From Geobacteraceae bacterium (GTDB lineage: Bacteria > Desulfobacterota > Desulfuromonadia > Desulfuromonadales > Geopsychrobacteraceae): 64,000 nt of DNA. The stretch covers positions 34,232-98,231 of the forward strand of contig SLDV01000031.1 of NCBI GenBank assembly GCA_007125165.1, written 5' to 3'. Positions 3,436 to 40,301 of this stretch are shown here, in pieces. The position numbers and the translations under genes are program-made. Position 1 is the first letter of the stretch, and each line of letters opens with the position of its first letter. The notes beneath the pieces are model-generated. The model was not told the DNA's origin, searched no databases, and saw only the letters and a program-made list of their open reading frames with translations.

Positions 3436-5115
3436 ATGAATTTTTTCTGCAGTAAAGACTGCCCCGACCTCTGTGGTATGGAAATTCACGATGATTCCTC
3501 CCTGATCAGCTACAAAGCCGAACCGGAATTGTGGAGTTCGCCCGGCTTCATCTGCAGAAAATTCCAGGATTTTGCTGCCCGGGAAATCAACAATGGCCTG
3601 ATGTCCTGGCAGCAAAAAGGGGATGAAAAGCTTGTCTACGAAGATAATGTGGAGGCTCTAGGCGCCCTGGCCGACTGGCTGGCTACCTTTCGGGACAAAA
3701 ACATTCTCTTCCTGCGCGGGTCGGGAAGTCTGGGCTACAACATGGGCTACTGGGATCAACTGTTTGCCGCCTTTCCCCATTGTGCCACGGTCAACAGCAA
3801 CCCCTGTAATGCTACCGGTGGAGCGGCCCATGAGCTGGACTTCGGCACAATAAGCAATCCCCACATTGCCCGGTTGGCCGAAGCCGAAACCATTATTCTG
3901 CACGGAAAGAATGCCGCCGTCACCAGTCCCCACCTCTACACCTATTTAAAAAAACTGAAAAAGTCGGGCATTGAAATCATCCTGATCGATCCGGTTAAAA
4001 CCGCTACGGTCGGCCTGGCTGATCACTATATCCAGATTCAGCCCGCCTGTGATGGTCTGCTTGCCTGCGCCCTGCTGACGGAACTGGGGCATGAATTTGA
4101 TTACCAGGTCCCCATGCTGCTGGATGCCGCCGGTATCGACGCCGACGCTTTCACTCTGTTACTTGAGCGACTCCGTAATAAAAAAGTCGCTCACATCCAG
4201 GGCCTCGGTCTGCAACGTCAGGAAAACGGCATGAACTCCATCCGCTGGATCAGCCGCCTGGCACATTTCACCAATAGCGTTGAGCGCCTTTATTACGGTC
4301 ACAGTTCCAAGCGCCGGTGGCACAAACATCCTGCCCGCTTTGCTACACAGATCGGCCTCGATGAGCTTCCGGGACGGTTGGCAGCAGGAGAGTTCGACCT
4401 TTTTGTCAATATTGCCGCCAATCCGGTGGTCACCTACGCCGACAGCAACCTCTGGGCCAGAGGATTAAGCCGTACACCTACCCTGGTGGTTGACACCAAC
4501 ATGTCAACGACAGCAACCTATGCTGATTTTTTTCTCAAGGTCGGTGGCATGTTTGCGCAAGCAGATTTTCAGAACAGCTACTTCTTCCCGCACCATTATT
4601 CCCGCCCCGCCTTTACCACTGAACTCAGTGATATGCGAGCCGCACATGCACTGGCGAAGAAACTCAAGATTCCCCTGATCAACAAAACGGAAGAAGAATC
4701 GCGCGCGCCCACCCCGACTACACGCCACTATCGAACAAAAACCCTTGACCTGCACTGGCCACAGGAGATGAGAGACTTTCGCCTGCTCACCGCCTCGCAC
4801 CTCGACTACCTTAACTCACAGATTATTAACGGACAGGAACAGGGTCTGCAGGTTATTCACATCAACCCCCTTGATGCCGAACAAAAGGAAATAGCAAGTG
4901 GCGATCACCTGCGCGTCGAAGGTGATTGCGGCGCCTTCAGCGCTCATGCTCTGATCACGGACGAGGTGCCGCAGGGCACCCTGATGTGCTGGAAAAATTT
5001 GCCGATGCTCGATGGTGTCTGCAACAGCGCGGTTCCCGGTCGCCTTACCGATGCCGATATCGGGCTGGCCTACTACGCTGCCGAAGTAAGGATTTTCAAG
5101 GTCACACGTGCCTGA
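3436..5115 (+). CDS. Molybdopterin-dependent oxidoreductase (short, about 560 aa)
   Basis: N-terminal FFCSKDCPDLCG...GFICRKF Fe4S4-type cysteines; molybdopterin oxidoreductase-like body and C-terminal dinucleotide-binding-like domain (INPLDAEQKEIASGDHLRVE). Confidence 0.8.
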   Translation: MNFFCSKDCPDLCGMEIHDDSSLISYKAEPELWSSPGFICRKFQDFAAREINNGLMSWQQKGDEKLVYEDNVEALGALADWLATFRDKNILFLRGSGSLGYNMGYWDQLFAAFPHCATVNSNPCNATGGAAHELDFGTISNPHIARLAEAETIILHGKNAAVTSPHLYTYLKKLKKSGIEIILIDPVKTATVGLADHYIQIQPACDGLLACALLTELGHEFDYQVPMLLDAAGIDADAFTLLLERLRNKKVAHIQGLGLQRQENGMNSIRWISRLAHFTNSVERLYYGHSSKRRWHKHPARFATQIGLDELPGRLAAGEFDLFVNIAANPVVTYADSNLWARGLSRTPTLVVDTNMSTTATYADFFLKVGGMFAQADFQNSYFFPHHYSRPAFTTELSDMRAAHALAKKLKIPLINKTEEESRAPTPTTRHYRTKTLDLHWPQEMRDFRLLTASHLDYLNSQIINGQEQGLQVIHINPLDAEQKEIASGDHLRVEGDCGAFSAHALITDEVPQGTLMCWKNLPMLDGVCNSAVPGRLTDADIGLAYYAAEVRIFKVTRA

Positions 5116-6667: not shown

Positions 6668-7186
6668 TTATTTGCTGCGCAGGTACTCCGACACCTTCTT
6701 GACCGCCCGCTCATTGAGAACCCGTGGCAGGCGCGTCCAATGCTGGGAGGTGCCGACGCCATCGGACCAGGAAAGCAAGGGTTGCTGCCCAGAAGATAAG
6801 GCATAGCTGTTATCAAGGGATGCGGCACCAGCACCAAAGCCGACAACGATCCGCGCGGCACTGCTGCCGGGGTTATACTTATCGATGGTCACTTCCAACA
6901 GGTAGCGCCCGGCTTTAGGGCTAAATTCTTTGCGAGCCGTAATCTGTTGTGCTTCATATCCCGAACGCCGCAACATATTGAGCAAATCGCGCTCCATCCA
7001 CTGCCCCACTTCGACGCGGAATTGATAATCACGCTCGCTCATGGTGGCAGGATCGCCACGATGGGACAATAAAAGTATCTCAACCTTCTCTCCACCATGA
7101 GTGGTTGGTGCCGGTGTTCCCTTGGCACAACCCGAGGTCAAAGCCACCAGTACCATCAACATCATTGCGAATCTCCACTTTTTCAT
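6668..7186 (-). CDS. DUF4410-like lipoprotein
   Basis: Lipobox LTSGCAKG; YLLEVTIDKYNPGSSAARIVVGFGAGAASLD resembles the DUF4410 family. Confidence 0.65.
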   Translation of the reverse strand: MKKWRFAMMLMVLVALTSGCAKGTPAPTTHGGEKVEILLLSHRGDPATMSERDYQFRVEVGQWMERDLLNMLRRSGYEAQQITARKEFSPKAGRYLLEVTIDKYNPGSSAARIVVGFGAGAASLDNSYALSSGQQPLLSWSDGVGTSQHWTRLPRVLNERAVKKVSEYLRSK

Positions 7187-7200
7187 TATCGCTCCTGACA

Positions 7201-8034
7201 TTATTTTTTGCGTTGTACAATAAGCTCCAGAACCTTTTTAGAAGCTTCGCCGTCAGGAGCAATACCAGCATCTCTTTGCAATGCCTGTATCGCTGACTTC
7301 GTTCTCGTTCCGTATAACCCATCTACAGGACCCGGATCATAGCCAATATCCGACAATCCTTGTTGTATATTTCGGACCAAATCACGGTTGGATGTGGGTA
7401 CCGTTTGACTTCCCATGATGGGCGGGAGCGGCGTCCGTTCAAGCTCCCGAACATATGCAGCAATTCCGGACTCACTCAACAAACGGTCTTCAACGGGCAA
7501 ACCATTGGCCTTTGCCATGCGAAACCAACGAAGCGCCTCTGCATTGCTTTTCTTGACCCCTGTACCTGTAGCCCAGATGAGCCCAAGCATGTGCATCGCG
7601 CCAACATGCTCATATTGCGCAGCTTTTTCCAGATACTGGATGGCAAGCATAGCTTCCTGTGGGTTTTTCGAATAAATTTCGACACCTATCAGATAGTTTG
7701 CAGGCGGATAACCGCTTTCTGCCGATTTTTCCATCCAGCGCACATAAGCCTGCTTGTCGCGTGTTGTCCCCTCGCCTGACAGATACATATTTGCCAACAT
7801 GAATTGCCCATAGTCGTGGCCTAGTTCAGCAGCGTTATTGAAATATGCAAAAGCTCTTTGATGATCCCCTTGATCATAAGCGGCATTTCCCCTTTCCACG
7901 GCAGCATTAGACTTTACATAATCAACCGCCCCGCCCGCTCCGGATTTAACTGAATCCACAACGCCGGCACAACCGATCAGCAACATAAAAAAAACACAAC
8001 CGACTAAATATAAAAACCTTTTACTATTGACCAT
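7201..8034 (-). CDS. SEL1-repeat lipoprotein with C-terminal peptidoglycan-binding domain
   Basis: Lipobox LLIGCAG; Sel1-like repeats (GHDYGQFMLANMYLSGEGTTRDKQAYVRWMEKSAESGYPPANYLIG); PG_binding_1-like VRNIQQGLSDIGYDPGPVDGLYGTRTKSAIQALQRDAGI. Confidence 0.85.
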   Translation of the reverse strand: MVNSKRFLYLVGCVFFMLLIGCAGVVDSVKSGAGGAVDYVKSNAAVERGNAAYDQGDHQRAFAYFNNAAELGHDYGQFMLANMYLSGEGTTRDKQAYVRWMEKSAESGYPPANYLIGVEIYSKNPQEAMLAIQYLEKAAQYEHVGAMHMLGLIWATGTGVKKSNAEALRWFRMAKANGLPVEDRLLSESGIAAYVRELERTPLPPIMGSQTVPTSNRDLVRNIQQGLSDIGYDPGPVDGLYGTRTKSAIQALQRDAGIAPDGEASKKVLELIVQRKK

Positions 8035-8080: not shown

Positions 8081-8905
8081 CTATTTCCCGCCACCACCGC
8101 CCCCGCCATCACCACCAGGGGAATTATGAACGAGATATGTAGAGCCGCCAGGTACCTGCACATAAAAATTATGGGTGTCGGCAACTTGCATGTTGACAAC
8201 CCGACTATTCACTCTGTCTACTCGTATATCTCCCACAATAAGCATCTGACCATCGATATGAATACTATCGCCGATTTTCAGATTTCGCGCTGTCGTCCAG
8301 CCACCCTGTGCCAGCAATCTCTCCCCTCCTGTTGTTTTCAATTCCTCATTAATCGTATACATGTGATTAGCTTCCACCGCATACAACTCAACAACAGGCT
8401 TTCCAACAAGGACATCACGCCCAATATCGTATGTCATGACGCGGTCACCTACAGAAATATCAGCAAATTTTTTAGTTGAGCCATCCTCCATCAACACCAT
8501 TGTCTCGGGAGGAAAACACCCCATCGATTCATTTAAAAGCCGCTCTTTAGTTCTTTCAAGATTTGCTAACTGCCGATCACGATGAGCAATTTCCCTCTCT
8601 ATCTTGTTAAGCGCGTTAAAACGCGTATTATCAAAGTCCGAGCTACCCGCCCTGATAAGCGTTCCTGGGTCATATGATAATGAATCCTCTTCTGCCTGCT
8701 TGGCCAGACGAGCTCGCTCCTCATTAGCAGCCCAGTGAAGCTCACGCTTTTCTTTAGTAACTAATGCGATTTTCTGATTCACTTCTTCGAGGGACGCTGG
8801 TGGTTTTACCCCGCCGCCGGGCCCAAAGCCATAACAACCGATCATAAGAAATATGATGCTCAATACTAATACTGCCTTCGCTACACAAAATAGAATTTGA
8901 TTCAT
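8081..8905 (-). CDS. Hint (intein/hedgehog-type) domain lipoprotein
   Basis: Lipobox LMIGCYG, coiled-coil region, then CFPPETMVLMEDGSTKKFADISVGDRVMTYD ... VADTHNFYVQVPGGSTYLVHN and Gly-rich tail; AGGAGG RBS before the chosen ATG. Confidence 0.82.
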   Translation of the reverse strand: MNQILFCVAKAVLVLSIIFLMIGCYGFGPGGGVKPPASLEEVNQKIALVTKEKRELHWAANEERARLAKQAEEDSLSYDPGTLIRAGSSDFDNTRFNALNKIEREIAHRDRQLANLERTKERLLNESMGCFPPETMVLMEDGSTKKFADISVGDRVMTYDIGRDVLVGKPVVELYAVEANHMYTINEELKTTGGERLLAQGGWTTARNLKIGDSIHIDGQMLIVGDIRVDRVNSRVVNMQVADTHNFYVQVPGGSTYLVHNSPGGDGGGGGGGK

Positions 8906-9072
8906 AAAACCTCCTGTTTTGACGATCAATAATACGTCGCTTCGGCTAGAGTTAATTGCCATCGATATTGTGATAAAGCCGAACAACAACGTTTTCATCG
9001 CCCCGATTTAATTCTTAAGCGCGACTTGTCGATTGAATCCATGAGGGCAACTGGTAGACTAAGTCTGCATTT

Positions 9073-11852: not shown

Positions 11853-12356
11853 TCAATCCTGACGTTCCGCTTTGCGCTGCCGCCTTAGCGCCAGCTCTTC
11901 GCGCAACGAGACAATCAGCAGGATGGCGACGCCGACACAGATGGCGCTGTCAGCAACGTTAAAGGCCGGCCAGTGGTATTGATACCAGTGGACGCCGACA
12001 AAATCGATCACCTCTCCTAAACGCACCCGGTCAATGACATTACCCACTGCCCCGCCCAGGATCAGCCCCAAAGAAAGATGCATCCATGTGGCTGATGCCG
12101 GTAACGTGCGCATGTACCAGATGATTCCCACTACAGCGACCAAGGCCACGGTCAGAAAAAACGGCAGTCGCCAGGCGCTGTCGGCAAAAATTCCGAAAGC
12201 GGCGCCGGGGTTACGAACATGGGTCAGATAGAGGTGATTCTCGATCAGCACCTTGAACTGTCCAAGGGCGTAATTGCGCTCAAAATAGACCTTGGTGAGC
12301 TGATCGAGTACCAAGGTTACCAGGACCACGCCGGCGAACAGGGGGTATTTCTTCAT
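11853..12356 (-). CDS. lspA: Lipoprotein signal peptidase II
   Basis: MKKYPLFAGVVLVTLVLDQLTKVYFERN...NPGAAFGIFAD...GGAVGNVIDRVRLGEVIDFV...FNVADSAI. Confidence 0.97.
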   Translation of the reverse strand: MKKYPLFAGVVLVTLVLDQLTKVYFERNYALGQFKVLIENHLYLTHVRNPGAAFGIFADSAWRLPFFLTVALVAVVGIIWYMRTLPASATWMHLSLGLILGGAVGNVIDRVRLGEVIDFVGVHWYQYHWPAFNVADSAICVGVAILLIVSLREELALRRQRKAERQD

Positions 12357-12357
12357 C

Positions 12358-15135
12358 TCAGCCTGCAGCCAGTGCTGCGACGCACCGCGAACAGAGGCTC
12401 GCATGTTCAGCATGATCACCAACACTGACGGCATAATTCCAACAGCGTTCACATTTACTGCCATCGGCAGAAATAATCTGCACCTTGAGCCCCGACACCT
12501 GTGTTTCTTCGACCGCCAAAGATTCCTCGGTCAATTCCACCTGTGACACAATAAAATAGGCCGGCAGTAGCGGCAGATAACGGGTCAACAGTTCACGATA
12601 ATCGTCGGGAACCTGAAGCACGACCTTGGCTTCAAGGGACTGCCCCAGGCGTTTTTCCGCCCGTGCTTTTTCCAGTTGGCGAGACACTTCGTTACGTATC
12701 TTGAGCAGCCGCTCGTAGGTTGCTTCCAGGGCATCATCCAGATCCGCAGCGACAACGTCCGAAAAGGAGGCAAGGTGGACACTGGATGGACGCTCGCCCG
12801 GCAGGCGCTGCCAGATTTCATCGGCGGTAAAACTCAGCACCGGTGCGATCAGCCGGGGCAGGACATCAACAATCCGATACAGGGCTGTGCGCGCGCTGCG
12901 ATATTCGATACTTGACGGCGCACTGGCATACAAACGGTCTTTGAGAATGTCGAGATAAAAAGCGCTCAGATCAATGCTGCAGAAGTTATGCACCGCGTGG
13001 TAGAGGGTGTGGAACTCGTAGCGCTCATAGGCCTTGAGAACGCGCTGATTCAGGCGTGCCAGGCGCGACAAGGCCCACCGATCCAGTTCGAGCAGCTCGG
13101 CGTCAGGCACCTGATCAGTCGCCGGATTGAAGTTGTTGAGATTGCCAAGCAGATAACGAGCGGTATTGCGGATGCGGCGATAAGCATCGGAAAGCCGTTG
13201 CAAAGTTTCTTCGCCCAGACGGATATCATCACGATAATCGGTGGCGGCAACCCACAGCCGCAGGATCTCCGCACCGTATTTCTTGATGATTTCTTCCGGA
13301 GAAATAACATTCCCCATCGATTTCGACATCGGGCGGCCATTCTTGTCGAGGACGAAACCGTGGGTCAGTACCGCCTTGTAAGGGGCACGATCCCGGGTTC
13401 CAACTGATTCCAGCAAGCTTGAGTGAAACCAGCCACGATGCTGATCCGATCCCTCCAGATAAAGATCAGCAGGGCTGTGAAGCTCATCACGCAGCTCACA
13501 TACGGCGGCATGAGACACTCCGGAATCGAACCAGACGTCAAGGATGTCGGTCTCCTTGGTAAAACGGTCATGATCACAGGCAGGGCAACGGGTACCGGCG
13601 GGCAACAGTTCTACGGCGTCTTTCTCGAACCAGACATCGCTCCCTTTTTCTTCAAACTGATCGGCGATATGGTGCATGACGGCGCCATCGTTGAGAGCTT
13701 CACCACATTTTTCACAATACATGATGGTGATCGGCACTCCCCAACTGCGCTGGCGACTGACACACCAATCGGGGCGCGCCTCGATCATGTTGTAGATACG
13801 ATCACGTCCCCAGGCCGGAATCCATTCGACCCGTTCGATCTCTTCCAGGGCTTTGCGGCGCAGGTCATTATGCTCCATGCTGATGAACCATTGCTCGGTG
13901 GCCCGGAAAATAACCGGCTTTTTACAGCGCCAGCAGTGAGGATAGCTGTGACTGACATTGCTTTCATGGAGCAGGGCCCCGACTTCAAGCAGCTTGTCGT
14001 TCACGGCACGATTGGCATCGGCCAGCTTCATTCCGCCGAACAATTCCAGTTCTTCACGGTAGCGACCGTAATCATCAACCGGATTATAGATTTCCAGACC
14101 ATACTTGAGACCGATCTGATAATCATCGTGTCCGTGCCCGGGAGCGGTATGAACACAGCCGGTACCCGCCTCGAGAGTGACATGATCACCAAGCATGATC
14201 AGGGAGTTGCGCTCATAAAAGGGATGACGGCAGTTTTTATTATCGAATTCAGCGGCATCAAGGGGCGCAACCACCATGGCCCCTTCCTGCCCGACGGCCG
14301 CCAGCACCTTTTCACGCAGCCCCTCGGCAACCACCAGATAGTCGCTGCCGCTATCGATCACCACGTAGGGCAATTCCGGATTGAGACTGATGCCCAGATT
14401 GGCTGGAATCGTCCAGGGTGTAGTCGTCCAGATAACAAAATTCAAGGGTTTGTCGGTCAGATGTGCCAGCGATTGCGGCAGGGTATCAACGTAGGGGAAC
14501 TTGACATAGATCGATGGCGAGCTGTGATCGTCATACTCGACTTCGGCTTCCGCCAGAGCAGTCACGCAGGAAGCACACCAGTGAATCGGCTTTTTCCCTT
14601 TGAACAGGGAACCCCGTTCCGCCAGACGCGCCAGCTCACGGGCCGTAGTCGCTTCATACCCTTCTGTCATCGTCAGGTAGGGATCTGCCCAGTTACCGAA
14701 AATTCCCAGACGCTGGAACTCCTCGGACTGAGTGGCAATCCAGACTCTGGCATACTCCCGACATTCACGGCGAAACTCGGCTTTACTCATGTCGCGCTTT
14801 TTCTTGCCGAGCTTTTTGTCAACCATCAGCTCGATCGGCAATCCATGGCAATCCCAGCCTGGCACATAAGGGGTGTGAAACCCCTGCATCCGTTTACTTT
14901 TAACGATGATATCCTTGAGAATCTTGTTGAGGGCATGCCCCATGTGGATATGACCGTTGGCATAGGGAGGACCATCGTGCAGAATAAATTTCTGCTTGCC
15001 AAGGTTGGCCTCTTCAAGCTGACGATTCAGCTCAGCCTGCTGCCACCGGGCCAGAATTTCCGGCTCCCGCACCGGCAGATTGGCGCGCATGGGGAAATCG
15101 GTTGCGGGCAAATTGAGTGTGTCTTTGTAATCCAT
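12358..15135 (-). CDS. ileS: Isoleucyl-tRNA synthetase
   Basis: HDGPPYANGHIHMGHALNKILKD (HIGH region), GRPMSKSMGNVISPEEI (KMSKS), C-terminal CERCWNY zinc motif. Confidence 0.98.
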   Translation of the reverse strand: MDYKDTLNLPATDFPMRANLPVREPEILARWQQAELNRQLEEANLGKQKFILHDGPPYANGHIHMGHALNKILKDIIVKSKRMQGFHTPYVPGWDCHGLPIELMVDKKLGKKKRDMSKAEFRRECREYARVWIATQSEEFQRLGIFGNWADPYLTMTEGYEATTARELARLAERGSLFKGKKPIHWCASCVTALAEAEVEYDDHSSPSIYVKFPYVDTLPQSLAHLTDKPLNFVIWTTTPWTIPANLGISLNPELPYVVIDSGSDYLVVAEGLREKVLAAVGQEGAMVVAPLDAAEFDNKNCRHPFYERNSLIMLGDHVTLEAGTGCVHTAPGHGHDDYQIGLKYGLEIYNPVDDYGRYREELELFGGMKLADANRAVNDKLLEVGALLHESNVSHSYPHCWRCKKPVIFRATEQWFISMEHNDLRRKALEEIERVEWIPAWGRDRIYNMIEARPDWCVSRQRSWGVPITIMYCEKCGEALNDGAVMHHIADQFEEKGSDVWFEKDAVELLPAGTRCPACDHDRFTKETDILDVWFDSGVSHAAVCELRDELHSPADLYLEGSDQHRGWFHSSLLESVGTRDRAPYKAVLTHGFVLDKNGRPMSKSMGNVISPEEIIKKYGAEILRLWVAATDYRDDIRLGEETLQRLSDAYRRIRNTARYLLGNLNNFNPATDQVPDAELLELDRWALSRLARLNQRVLKAYERYEFHTLYHAVHNFCSIDLSAFYLDILKDRLYASAPSSIEYRSARTALYRIVDVLPRLIAPVLSFTADEIWQRLPGERPSSVHLASFSDVVAADLDDALEATYERLLKIRNEVSRQLEKARAEKRLGQSLEAKVVLQVPDDYRELLTRYLPLLPAYFIVSQVELTEESLAVEETQVSGLKVQIISADGSKCERCWNYAVSVGDHAEHASLCSRCVAALAAG

Positions 15136-15367
15136 GAAATGTCTCTCCACGGGGCATCGAATCCCCTGATTGTTTATTGTCTGTATGTAACCCTTTACCT
15201 GTTCAGCAATATTGTCTTCTCCGAGTGCCTTTGTCGGGGATCCAGAGAGAACAACCGGATTCCGGCCAAAAACACGCCGGAATAACGGCAGGTGTTGACT
15301 TCAGCCACAATCATTCGCGGCTAACGCCACTCCTACATGACGTGCTGACCAGTTACGGCTGGATTAT

Positions 15368-40205: not shown

Positions 40206-40301
40206 TGGCGGAGGCAGATGAGAATCGAACTCACCAGGGACGGGGTACGCCCCCCATCGGTTTTGAAGACCGTGAGCGCCACCAGGCTACTGACTGCCTC
40301 C
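40206..40301 (-). tRNA. selC: tRNA-Sec (anticodon TCA)
   Basis: Reverse strand GGAGGCAGTCAGTAGCC...GGTCTTCAAAACC...(long variable arm)...TGAGTTCGATTCTCATCTGCCTCCGCCA; 8-bp acceptor stem, TCA anticodon, CCA encoded. Confidence 0.96.

What the first reader, a model, noticed from the sequence alone, without database searches (positions are those of the whole stretch)
8081..8905. Lipoprotein with a Hint domain and no toxin, ending in a poly-glycine tail
Seen: lipobox, charged coiled-coil region, then a Hint domain beginning CFPPETMVLMEDGS and ending YLVHN, followed only by SPGGDGGGGGGGK. Known: Hint domains in polymorphic toxins usually release a C-terminal toxin, and bacterial intein-like domains self-cleave. 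Inference: self-cleavage here would release or modify a lipid-anchored N-terminal piece rather than a toxin. The terminal HN resembles a splicing/cleavage Asn.
Basis: partly seen in the sequence, partly recalled or inferred. Interest (0 to 1): 0.62.

Follow-up and report, generated by a model that had tools for sequence, protein, structure and literature searches.

The report
Self-processing lipoprotein with lysine tail
A bacterial surface-anchored protein carries a self-cutting (intein-like) domain followed only by a short glycine-rich tail that always ends in lysine; related genes with the same tail and usually the same neighbour gene occur in distant bacteria, suggesting that the domain cuts or splices itself out to leave a small cell-wall anchor rather than to release a toxin.

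Summary
Window 8081-8905 (-) encodes a 274-residue lipoprotein: lipid Cys24, helical hairpin, 132-residue Hint domain (C130 to H260-N261), then SPGGDGGGGGGGK-stop. Pfam calls it PT-HINT (1.9e-10) and an AlphaFold model matches solved BIL/intein structures (TM 0.84), but no toxin follows. (1) Block B, TxxH in other Hint domains, reads T-G-G-E; Glu replaces His in all members of a monophyletic clade found in two phyla, so it is a conserved change, not decay. (2) That clade is a two-gene module: in 6 of 6 intact loci the next gene is a Sel1 + peptidoglycan-binding lipoprotein. (3) In 14 of 14 lysine-tailed relatives the residue after HN is a splicing nucleophile (S/T/C); BIL domains by definition lack it. 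(4) Those tails vary (2-21 residues), but the last residue is always Lys (about 11% baseline here). Best reading: an autoprocessing envelope lipoprotein whose Hint splices out, or cuts, to leave a lipid-anchored hairpin ending Ser-Gly(n)-Lys, resembling Braun's lipoprotein, whose C-terminal Lys is joined to peptidoglycan by L,D-transpeptidases. Autoprocessing and tethering are inferred, not shown. Rivals: C-terminal cleavage only, amine ligation, inactive Hint.

The parts
8081..8905 (-). gene for the 274-aa lipoprotein-Hint-Gly/Lys-tail protein (P0001)
   Evidence: AGGAGG-like site at 8910-8915 upstream of the ATG
8834..8905 (-). lipoprotein signal peptide, lipobox MIGC, lipid-attachment Cys24; residue +2 is Tyr, not the Asp inner-membrane retention signal
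   Evidence: sequence; all six intact E-type relatives are lipoproteins without Asp at +2
8528..8791 (-). helical hairpin / coiled-coil N-extein (residues 39-126)
   Evidence: AF2 helices 39-76 and 88-126, pLDDT mostly 86-94
8123..8518 (-). Hint domain C130-N261 (132 residues; the same length in all six intact E-type proteins)
   Evidence: Pfam PF07591/PF01079, 2lwy, Foldseek, length
8516..8518 (-). Cys130, N-S acyl shift nucleophile by homology; preceded by Gly129
   Evidence: invariant in all relatives
8321..8332 (-). block B T192-G-G-E195: Glu in place of the block-B His
   Evidence: Glu in 6/6 E-type, His in 9/9 others; E-type monophyletic, support 100/99
8258..8260 (-). His216, E-type-specific (His 5/6, Tyr 1/6), 21 residues after the block-B position; candidate compensating residue (inference)
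   Evidence: position compared with Lys58 of the Tko CDC21-1 intein (PMC4031507)
8123..8128 (-). His260-Asn261, C-terminal processing pair
   Evidence: invariant
8120..8122 (-). Ser262, +1 nucleophile
   Evidence: S, T or C in 14/14 lysine-tailed relatives
8084..8119 (-). Gly-rich tail ending in C-terminal Lys274 (codon 8084-8086)
   Evidence: terminal Lys in 14/14; tail length and sequence variable; baseline 18/158
7201..8034 (-). partner gene: lipoprotein with Sel1 repeats and a C-terminal PG_binding_1 domain, 46 bp downstream
   Evidence: Pfam; directly downstream in 6/6 intact E-type loci
6668..7201 (-). DUF4410 lipoprotein overlapping the end of the partner gene; same apparent transcription unit but not part of the conserved module
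   Evidence: Pfam; found beside the module only in the same-genus genome G001

Best explanation
This is an autoprocessing envelope lipoprotein, not a toxin carrier. After export the Cys24-lipidated protein sits in the outer membrane with its helical hairpin, Hint and tail in the periplasm. The Hint (a BIL/intein-type domain with Cys1, penultimate His, terminal Asn and a +1 Ser/Thr/Cys) most likely removes itself by splicing: Gly129-Cys130 becomes a thioester, Ser262 attacks it, Asn261 cyclises, and the product is the lipidated hairpin joined to Ser-Gly(n)-Lys. The exposed C-terminal Lys on a flexible Gly linker is then a substrate for a YkuD L,D-transpeptidase, as in Braun's lipoprotein, so the product is a spliced outer-membrane-to-peptidoglycan tether working next to the peptidoglycan-binding Sel1 lipoprotein encoded downstream. 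Shown here: sequence features, fold, clade, gene pair, invariant +1 class and C-terminal Lys. Inferred: that the Hint is active (about 0.65), that it splices rather than only cleaves (about 0.4), that Lys is attached to peptidoglycan (about 0.3). In the E-type clade the first step must work without the block-B His, perhaps through Glu195 with His216.
For: HINT fold and family. C130, T192, N238, H260, N261 invariant or nearly so across E- and H-types. The Hint is the best conserved part: pairwise 54-72% identity against 23-58% for the N-extein, with fixed length 132 in all six. The H-type pair L042/L043 has dN below dS in the Hint but not in the N-extein. +1 is S/T/C in 14/14 Lys-tailed proteins, against Lys in 12 of 15 scored junctions of unrelated, mostly tandem, Hint proteins. 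+1 Ser is encoded by both TCN and AGC within the clade. Terminal Lys in 14/14 although tails run from SK to a 21-mer, against 18/158 ORFs in the same loci and against K, P, K and L for the partner protein. Module of Hint plus Sel1/PG-binding lipoprotein in 6/6 intact loci in two phyla. YkuD domains in all six genomes, and no LPP family protein in any. No Asp at +2, consistent with outer-membrane sorting. Literature: BILs lack the +1 nucleophile (PMC4031507, PMC7664689); some inteins splice without the block-B His through compensating residues; a single C-terminal Lys is necessary and sufficient for L,D-transpeptidase attachment of OutB, and the box tolerates many substitutions (PMC12274547).
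Against: Block-B His, the most conserved intein residue, is Glu here, which may block the N-S shift. The F:4-equivalent residue is Asn238 rather than the usual intein Asp. C-terminal Lys is common in envelope proteins (over 20% of E. coli periplasmic proteins and lipoproteins), and the relatives are not independent samples (about 10 distinct lineages). The Gly-Lys tail does not resemble the Lpp box apart from the final Lys. YkuD domains are widespread (6 of 14 control genomes). No Hint-less allele with the Gly-Lys tail was found; the one Hint-less paralogue seen ends Gly-rich but without Lys. No experimental evidence of any kind.
Confidence: 0.3

Rival explanations
1. C-terminal cleavage only. 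Without the block-B His the N-terminal step is lost; Asn261 cyclisation cuts off the S-Gly(n)-K tail, leaving a lipoprotein-Hint. If the tail Lys has already been joined to peptidoglycan, this would act as a self-severing tether or timer.
For: HN conserved; block-B His replaced by Glu in the whole clade; N-terminal reactions depend on that His in inteins.
Against: Cys130, T192, Gly at -1 and a +1 nucleophile are all kept in the clade, which C-cleavage alone does not need; related H-type proteins with the same tail keep the His.
Confidence: 0.22
2. Amine ligation, Hedgehog- or BIL-like. The Gly129 thioester is handed to an external amine (a Lys of another tail, a peptidoglycan side chain or another molecule), covalently attaching the lipidated hairpin to it.
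For: Nearest solved folds are BIL domains, including one from the ciliate BUBL1 locus; Gly or Ala at -1 in every member; type A BILs ligate through a free amine.
Against: The +1 nucleophile, not needed for this, is invariant as S/T/C in the Lys-tailed set.
Confidence: 0.14
3. Inactive Hint kept as a structural periplasmic domain, with the Gly-Lys tail a flexible or solubilising end.
For: Block-B His lost; the module is rare and patchy, so a minor role is possible.
Against: Cys1, HN and +1 all conserved across two phyla; the Hint is the most conserved part with no length change; H-type sisters with full sites share the tail.
Confidence: 0.2
4. Orphan pretoxin: a polymorphic-toxin stalk that has lost its C-terminal toxin.
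For: The best Pfam match is named PT-HINT; plasmid matches are mostly annotated as polymorphic toxins.
Against: No toxin or immunity gene nearby; tail and gene pair conserved in six intact loci; partner is a cell-wall-binding lipoprotein.
Confidence: 0.02

Closest known systems
Type A bacterial intein-like (BIL) domains (for example Clostridium thermocellum 2lwy; Tetrahymena BUBL1 BIL2 6y75/6tmm)
   Same: HINT fold, Cys1, C-terminal His-Asn, Asn at the F:4-equivalent position, no endonuclease
   Different: +1 is always S/T/C in the Lys-tailed set, whereas BILs lack it; block-B His is Glu in this clade; fixed placement in lipoproteins before a short Gly-Lys tail
Class 1 (mini-)inteins
   Same: Cys1, Thr of block B, His-Asn, +1 nucleophile
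   Different: no block-B His; F:4 Asn; no conserved host insertion site and no intein-free allele found; C-extein only 13 residues
PT-HINT pretoxin domains of polymorphic toxins (PF07591)
   Same: family match above cut-off; releasing position near the C-terminus
   Different: no toxin domain, no immunity gene, conserved Lys-ended tail
Hedgehog Hog/Hint domain
   Same: fold; Cys-dependent acyl transfer on an N-terminal lipid-modified protein by analogy
   Different: Hint here ends in HN with a retained tail; no sterol-recognition region seen in the sequence
Braun's lipoprotein (Lpp) and OutB-type L,D-transpeptidase substrates
   Same: lipid-anchored helical protein (predicted product) with a C-terminal Lys
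   Different: not homologous (no LPP family match); linker is poly-Gly instead of an Lpp box; carries a Hint

Membership tests
HINT superfamily | HINT fold, with Cys/Ser at position 1 | tested here: met
   C130 invariant
BIL type A | C-terminal His-Asn | tested here: met
   H260-N261
BIL type A | no nucleophile at +1 | tested here: not met
   Ser262; S/T/C in 14/14 Lys-tailed relatives; definition in PMC4031507 and PMC7664689
BIL type A | self-cleavage or splicing activity | not testable with these tools
   needs expression and MS
Class 1 intein | block-B T-x-x-H | tested here: not met
   T192-G-G-E195; Glu in all E-type members
Class 1 intein | +1 Cys/Ser/Thr and terminal Asn | tested here: met
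   N261-S262
Class 1 intein | insertion in a host gene with intein-free alleles | tested here: inconclusive
   one Hint-free partner locus and one Hint-less paralogue without Lys; no clean empty site
Polymorphic toxin with PT-HINT | C-terminal toxin after the HINT domain | tested here: not met
   only 13 residues follow; tails 2-21 residues in relatives
Hedgehog Hint (Hog) | ester ligation of the N-terminal piece to a sterol | not testable with these tools
   needs a biochemical assay; family seen only as a weaker fold and sequence match
Braun's lipoprotein (PF04728) | sequence homology to LPP | tested here: not met
   no LPP match in any of the six genomes
L,D-transpeptidase-attached lipoprotein (functional class) | lipidated N-terminus and C-terminal Lys | tested here: met
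   lipobox Cys24 and Lys274; Lys 14/14; lipidation itself is by sequence only
L,D-transpeptidase-attached lipoprotein (functional class) | covalent bond to peptidoglycan | not testable with these tools
   needs sacculus preparation and MS; YkuD enzymes are present in all six genomes

The most novel reading that the evidence does not exclude
A class of self-splicing lipoproteins in which an intein-like domain is a fixed part of the gene and, with Glu instead of the block-B His, splices in the periplasm to make a lipid-anchored protein ending in Gly(n)-Lys that L,D-transpeptidases attach to peptidoglycan: protein splicing used as a routine maturation step of an envelope tether.
Probability: 0.2. 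Interest if true: 0.85.

Novelty: new variant of a known kind. Interest (0 to 1): 0.55.

Why it matters
Hint domains in bacteria are described mainly as inteins, BIL domains and toxin-releasing domains. A conserved lipoprotein form with no toxin, a splicing-competent +1 residue and an invariant C-terminal Lys would give Hint autoprocessing a housekeeping role in the cell envelope. The fixed His-to-Glu change in block B gives a natural test of how the most conserved intein residue can be replaced. Both ideas can be tested with single-gene expression in a laboratory strain.

Tried and rejected
Phage origin: no tblastn match in 50,697 phage records and no relative in viral contigs. Plasmid origin: only distant Hint matches, mostly annotated as polymorphic toxins. 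Toxin system: no toxin or immunity gene, and the partner is a Sel1/peptidoglycan-binding lipoprotein. Chance Gly repeat: Gly codons in the tail are mixed (GGT, GGC, GGG) and the tail recurs in relatives with other lengths. Hint-less allele test: the Sel1/PG-binding search found one such gene without a Hint (G883), with no Lys-tailed lipoprotein beside it; the Hint-less paralogue in L048 ends PDGGGGGGPSYPSGPTYP without Lys, so the test is inconclusive. Full-length AF2 with three sequences left the Hint at low confidence; the Hint alone gave a usable model. Decay in the sister genome: G001 has the same module frameshifted, but its neighbour genes also match in overlapping or split pieces, so assembly errors cannot be excluded and I do not claim gene loss. 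Larger genome samples added no new Lys-tailed members. Paper searches found no description of this architecture in the held library, which is not proof of absence.

Full report
WHAT IS THERE. The reported gene is real. Minus-strand 8081-8905 encodes 274 residues: a lipoprotein signal with lipobox MIGC and Cys24, two long helices (39-76, 88-126), a Hint domain C130-N261, and a 13-residue tail S-PGGDGGGGGGG-K. Pfam gives PT-HINT at 1.9e-10 and Hint at 2.2e-8, both above curated cut-offs. The closest solved relative by sequence is a bacterial intein-like domain, 2lwy, and an AlphaFold model of the Hint alone (pLDDT 81) matches BIL domains first (6y75, 6tmm, 2lwy; TM up to 0.84), then inteins, then Hedgehog.

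RELATIVES. One copy is present in the window's genome. Close relatives lie in a Desulfobacteraceae genome (L001) and in Azonexus hydrophilus (L002), in G111 of the same order, and in G1038 and G943. These six share 54-72% identity in the Hint but only 23-58% in the N-extein, and every Hint is exactly 132 residues long. A second, more distant set has the same plan: L005, L006, L007, L009, L012, L027, L028, L030; most have a lipobox, while L006/L007 look rather membrane-anchored and the starts of L009 and L028 are cut by contig ends. The N-terminal parts differ, for example helices, or TPR plus CsgG in L027. No relative was found in phage records or viral contigs. The family is rare: 3 of 243 genomes in one order, 1 of 349 in the order of Azonexus for close matches.

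THE BLOCK-B CHANGE. In the six close relatives the T-x-x-H motif reads T-x-G-E; all nine other members of the alignment have His. A tree of the Hint makes the Glu set one group with support 100/99, although it spans Thermodesulfobacteriota and Pseudomonadota, so the gene has moved between phyla (inference). About fifteen other positions change together with it, among them His216 (5 of 6), 21 residues after the block-B position. According to a review, of two inteins known without the block-B His one is a pseudogene and the other, Tko CDC21-1, uses a Lys 23 residues further on (PMC4031507); a later paper says several inteins lack it and still splice (PMC7664689). The change is therefore compatible with activity, and its conservation argues against decay, but it does not prove activity.

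THE GENE PAIR. In all six intact Glu-type loci the next gene downstream encodes a lipoprotein with Sel1 repeats and a peptidoglycan-binding domain (37-52% identical to window 7201-8034), although the flanks otherwise differ; none of the His-type loci shows it (several of these on short contigs). The same-genus genome G001 carries the whole module at the same site in a frameshifted state, including a reading of HN-SSGGDGGGK-stop, E in block B and a peptidoglycan-binding remnant. Its neighbouring genes also match in overlapping or split pieces, so this may be an assembly problem.

THE TAIL. The tails after HN are SPGGDGGGGGGGK, SSGGGK, SGGGGGGGGGGK, TGGGGEGGGK, TSGGGSGGGGPK and SSGGGGGAK in the Glu set, and CGNGGGK (twice), CGGGGK (twice), TGGGGGGGK, TGGGGGGK, TGNGGGNGDTEMERDLKRLLK and SK in the His set. 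Two positions are constant: the first is S, T or C in 14 of 14, and the last is Lys in 14 of 14. Near-duplicates reduce this to about ten lineages. The baseline for C-terminal Lys is 18 of 158 ORFs of 220 aa or more in the same loci, though over 20% for E. coli periplasmic proteins and lipoproteins (PMC12274547). The partner protein, a matched control, ends K, P, K and L in the four loci read. In unrelated, mostly tandem, Hint proteins the residue after HN was Lys in 12 of 15 scored junctions. Two further lipoprotein-Hint proteins, L044 and L029, have Lys at +1 and do not end in Lys, so the rule holds for the Lys-tailed set and not for all lipoprotein-Hint proteins.

INTERPRETATION. BIL domains are defined by the absence of the +1 nucleophile; this set has it, with Gly or Ala before Cys1, so the full set of splicing nucleophiles is present. 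The simplest reason for conserving both +1 and the last residue while everything between drifts is that the tail is kept in the mature protein: splicing would give lipid-hairpin-Gly-Ser-Gly(n)-Lys. A lipidated helical protein ending in Lys is what L,D-transpeptidases attach to peptidoglycan in Lpp, and a single C-terminal Lys was shown to be necessary and sufficient in OutB, with broad tolerance of the preceding residues (PMC12274547). The six genomes have YkuD enzymes and no LPP family protein; both facts are permissive, not specific. The Sel1/peptidoglycan-binding partner and the lack of Asp at +2 fit an outer-membrane-to-cell-wall position.

LIMITS. No step of autoprocessing or attachment has been shown. 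The block-B change could leave only C-terminal cleavage or nothing. No Hint-less allele with a Gly-Lys end was found. The catalytic roles are assigned by homology.

Noticed in passing
L015, L018-L021, L034-L036: Proteins with tandem Hint domains placed end to end (HN-K-G-C...), followed by HN-K-Gly(3-5), a Ser/Gly-rich linker and a transmembrane segment with a further domain; +1 is Lys in 12 of 15 scored junctions.
   Followed up: partly
L044 (453-1328 -), L029 (1237-1914 +): Lipoprotein-Hint proteins of another branch, ending HN-KGGGGMS and HN-KGGSS: same plan, Lys at +1 instead of at the end.
   Followed up: partly
L048: Tandem TPR/CsgG-type lipoprotein paralogues: one with a C-terminal Hint ending HN-SK, the one upstream without Hint ending PDGGGGGGPSYPSGPTYP.
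   Followed up: partly
L046 (G001, same genus): Frameshifted copy of the whole two-gene module at the same site, with T-G-H-E in block B and HN-SSGGDGGGK; neighbouring genes also match in overlapping or split pieces.
   Followed up: partly
L052, L053: Hint lipoproteins that have lost the end: two tandem copies of which the first ends LVK without HN (L052), and one frameshifted copy with a stop directly after HN (L053).
   Followed up: no
window 11853-12464 (-): Gene that looks like lspA (lipoprotein signal peptidase), next to an ileS-like gene (12358-15150), about 3 kb from the lipoprotein operon; assigned by reading, not by a family search.
   Followed up: no
window 40206-40301 (-): Selenocysteine tRNA gene, the only tRNA found in the window.
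   Followed up: no
window 3436-5115 (+): Short (559 aa) molybdopterin oxidoreductase-like protein whose N-terminus keeps a Cys-rich CSKDCPDLC motif.
   Followed up: no
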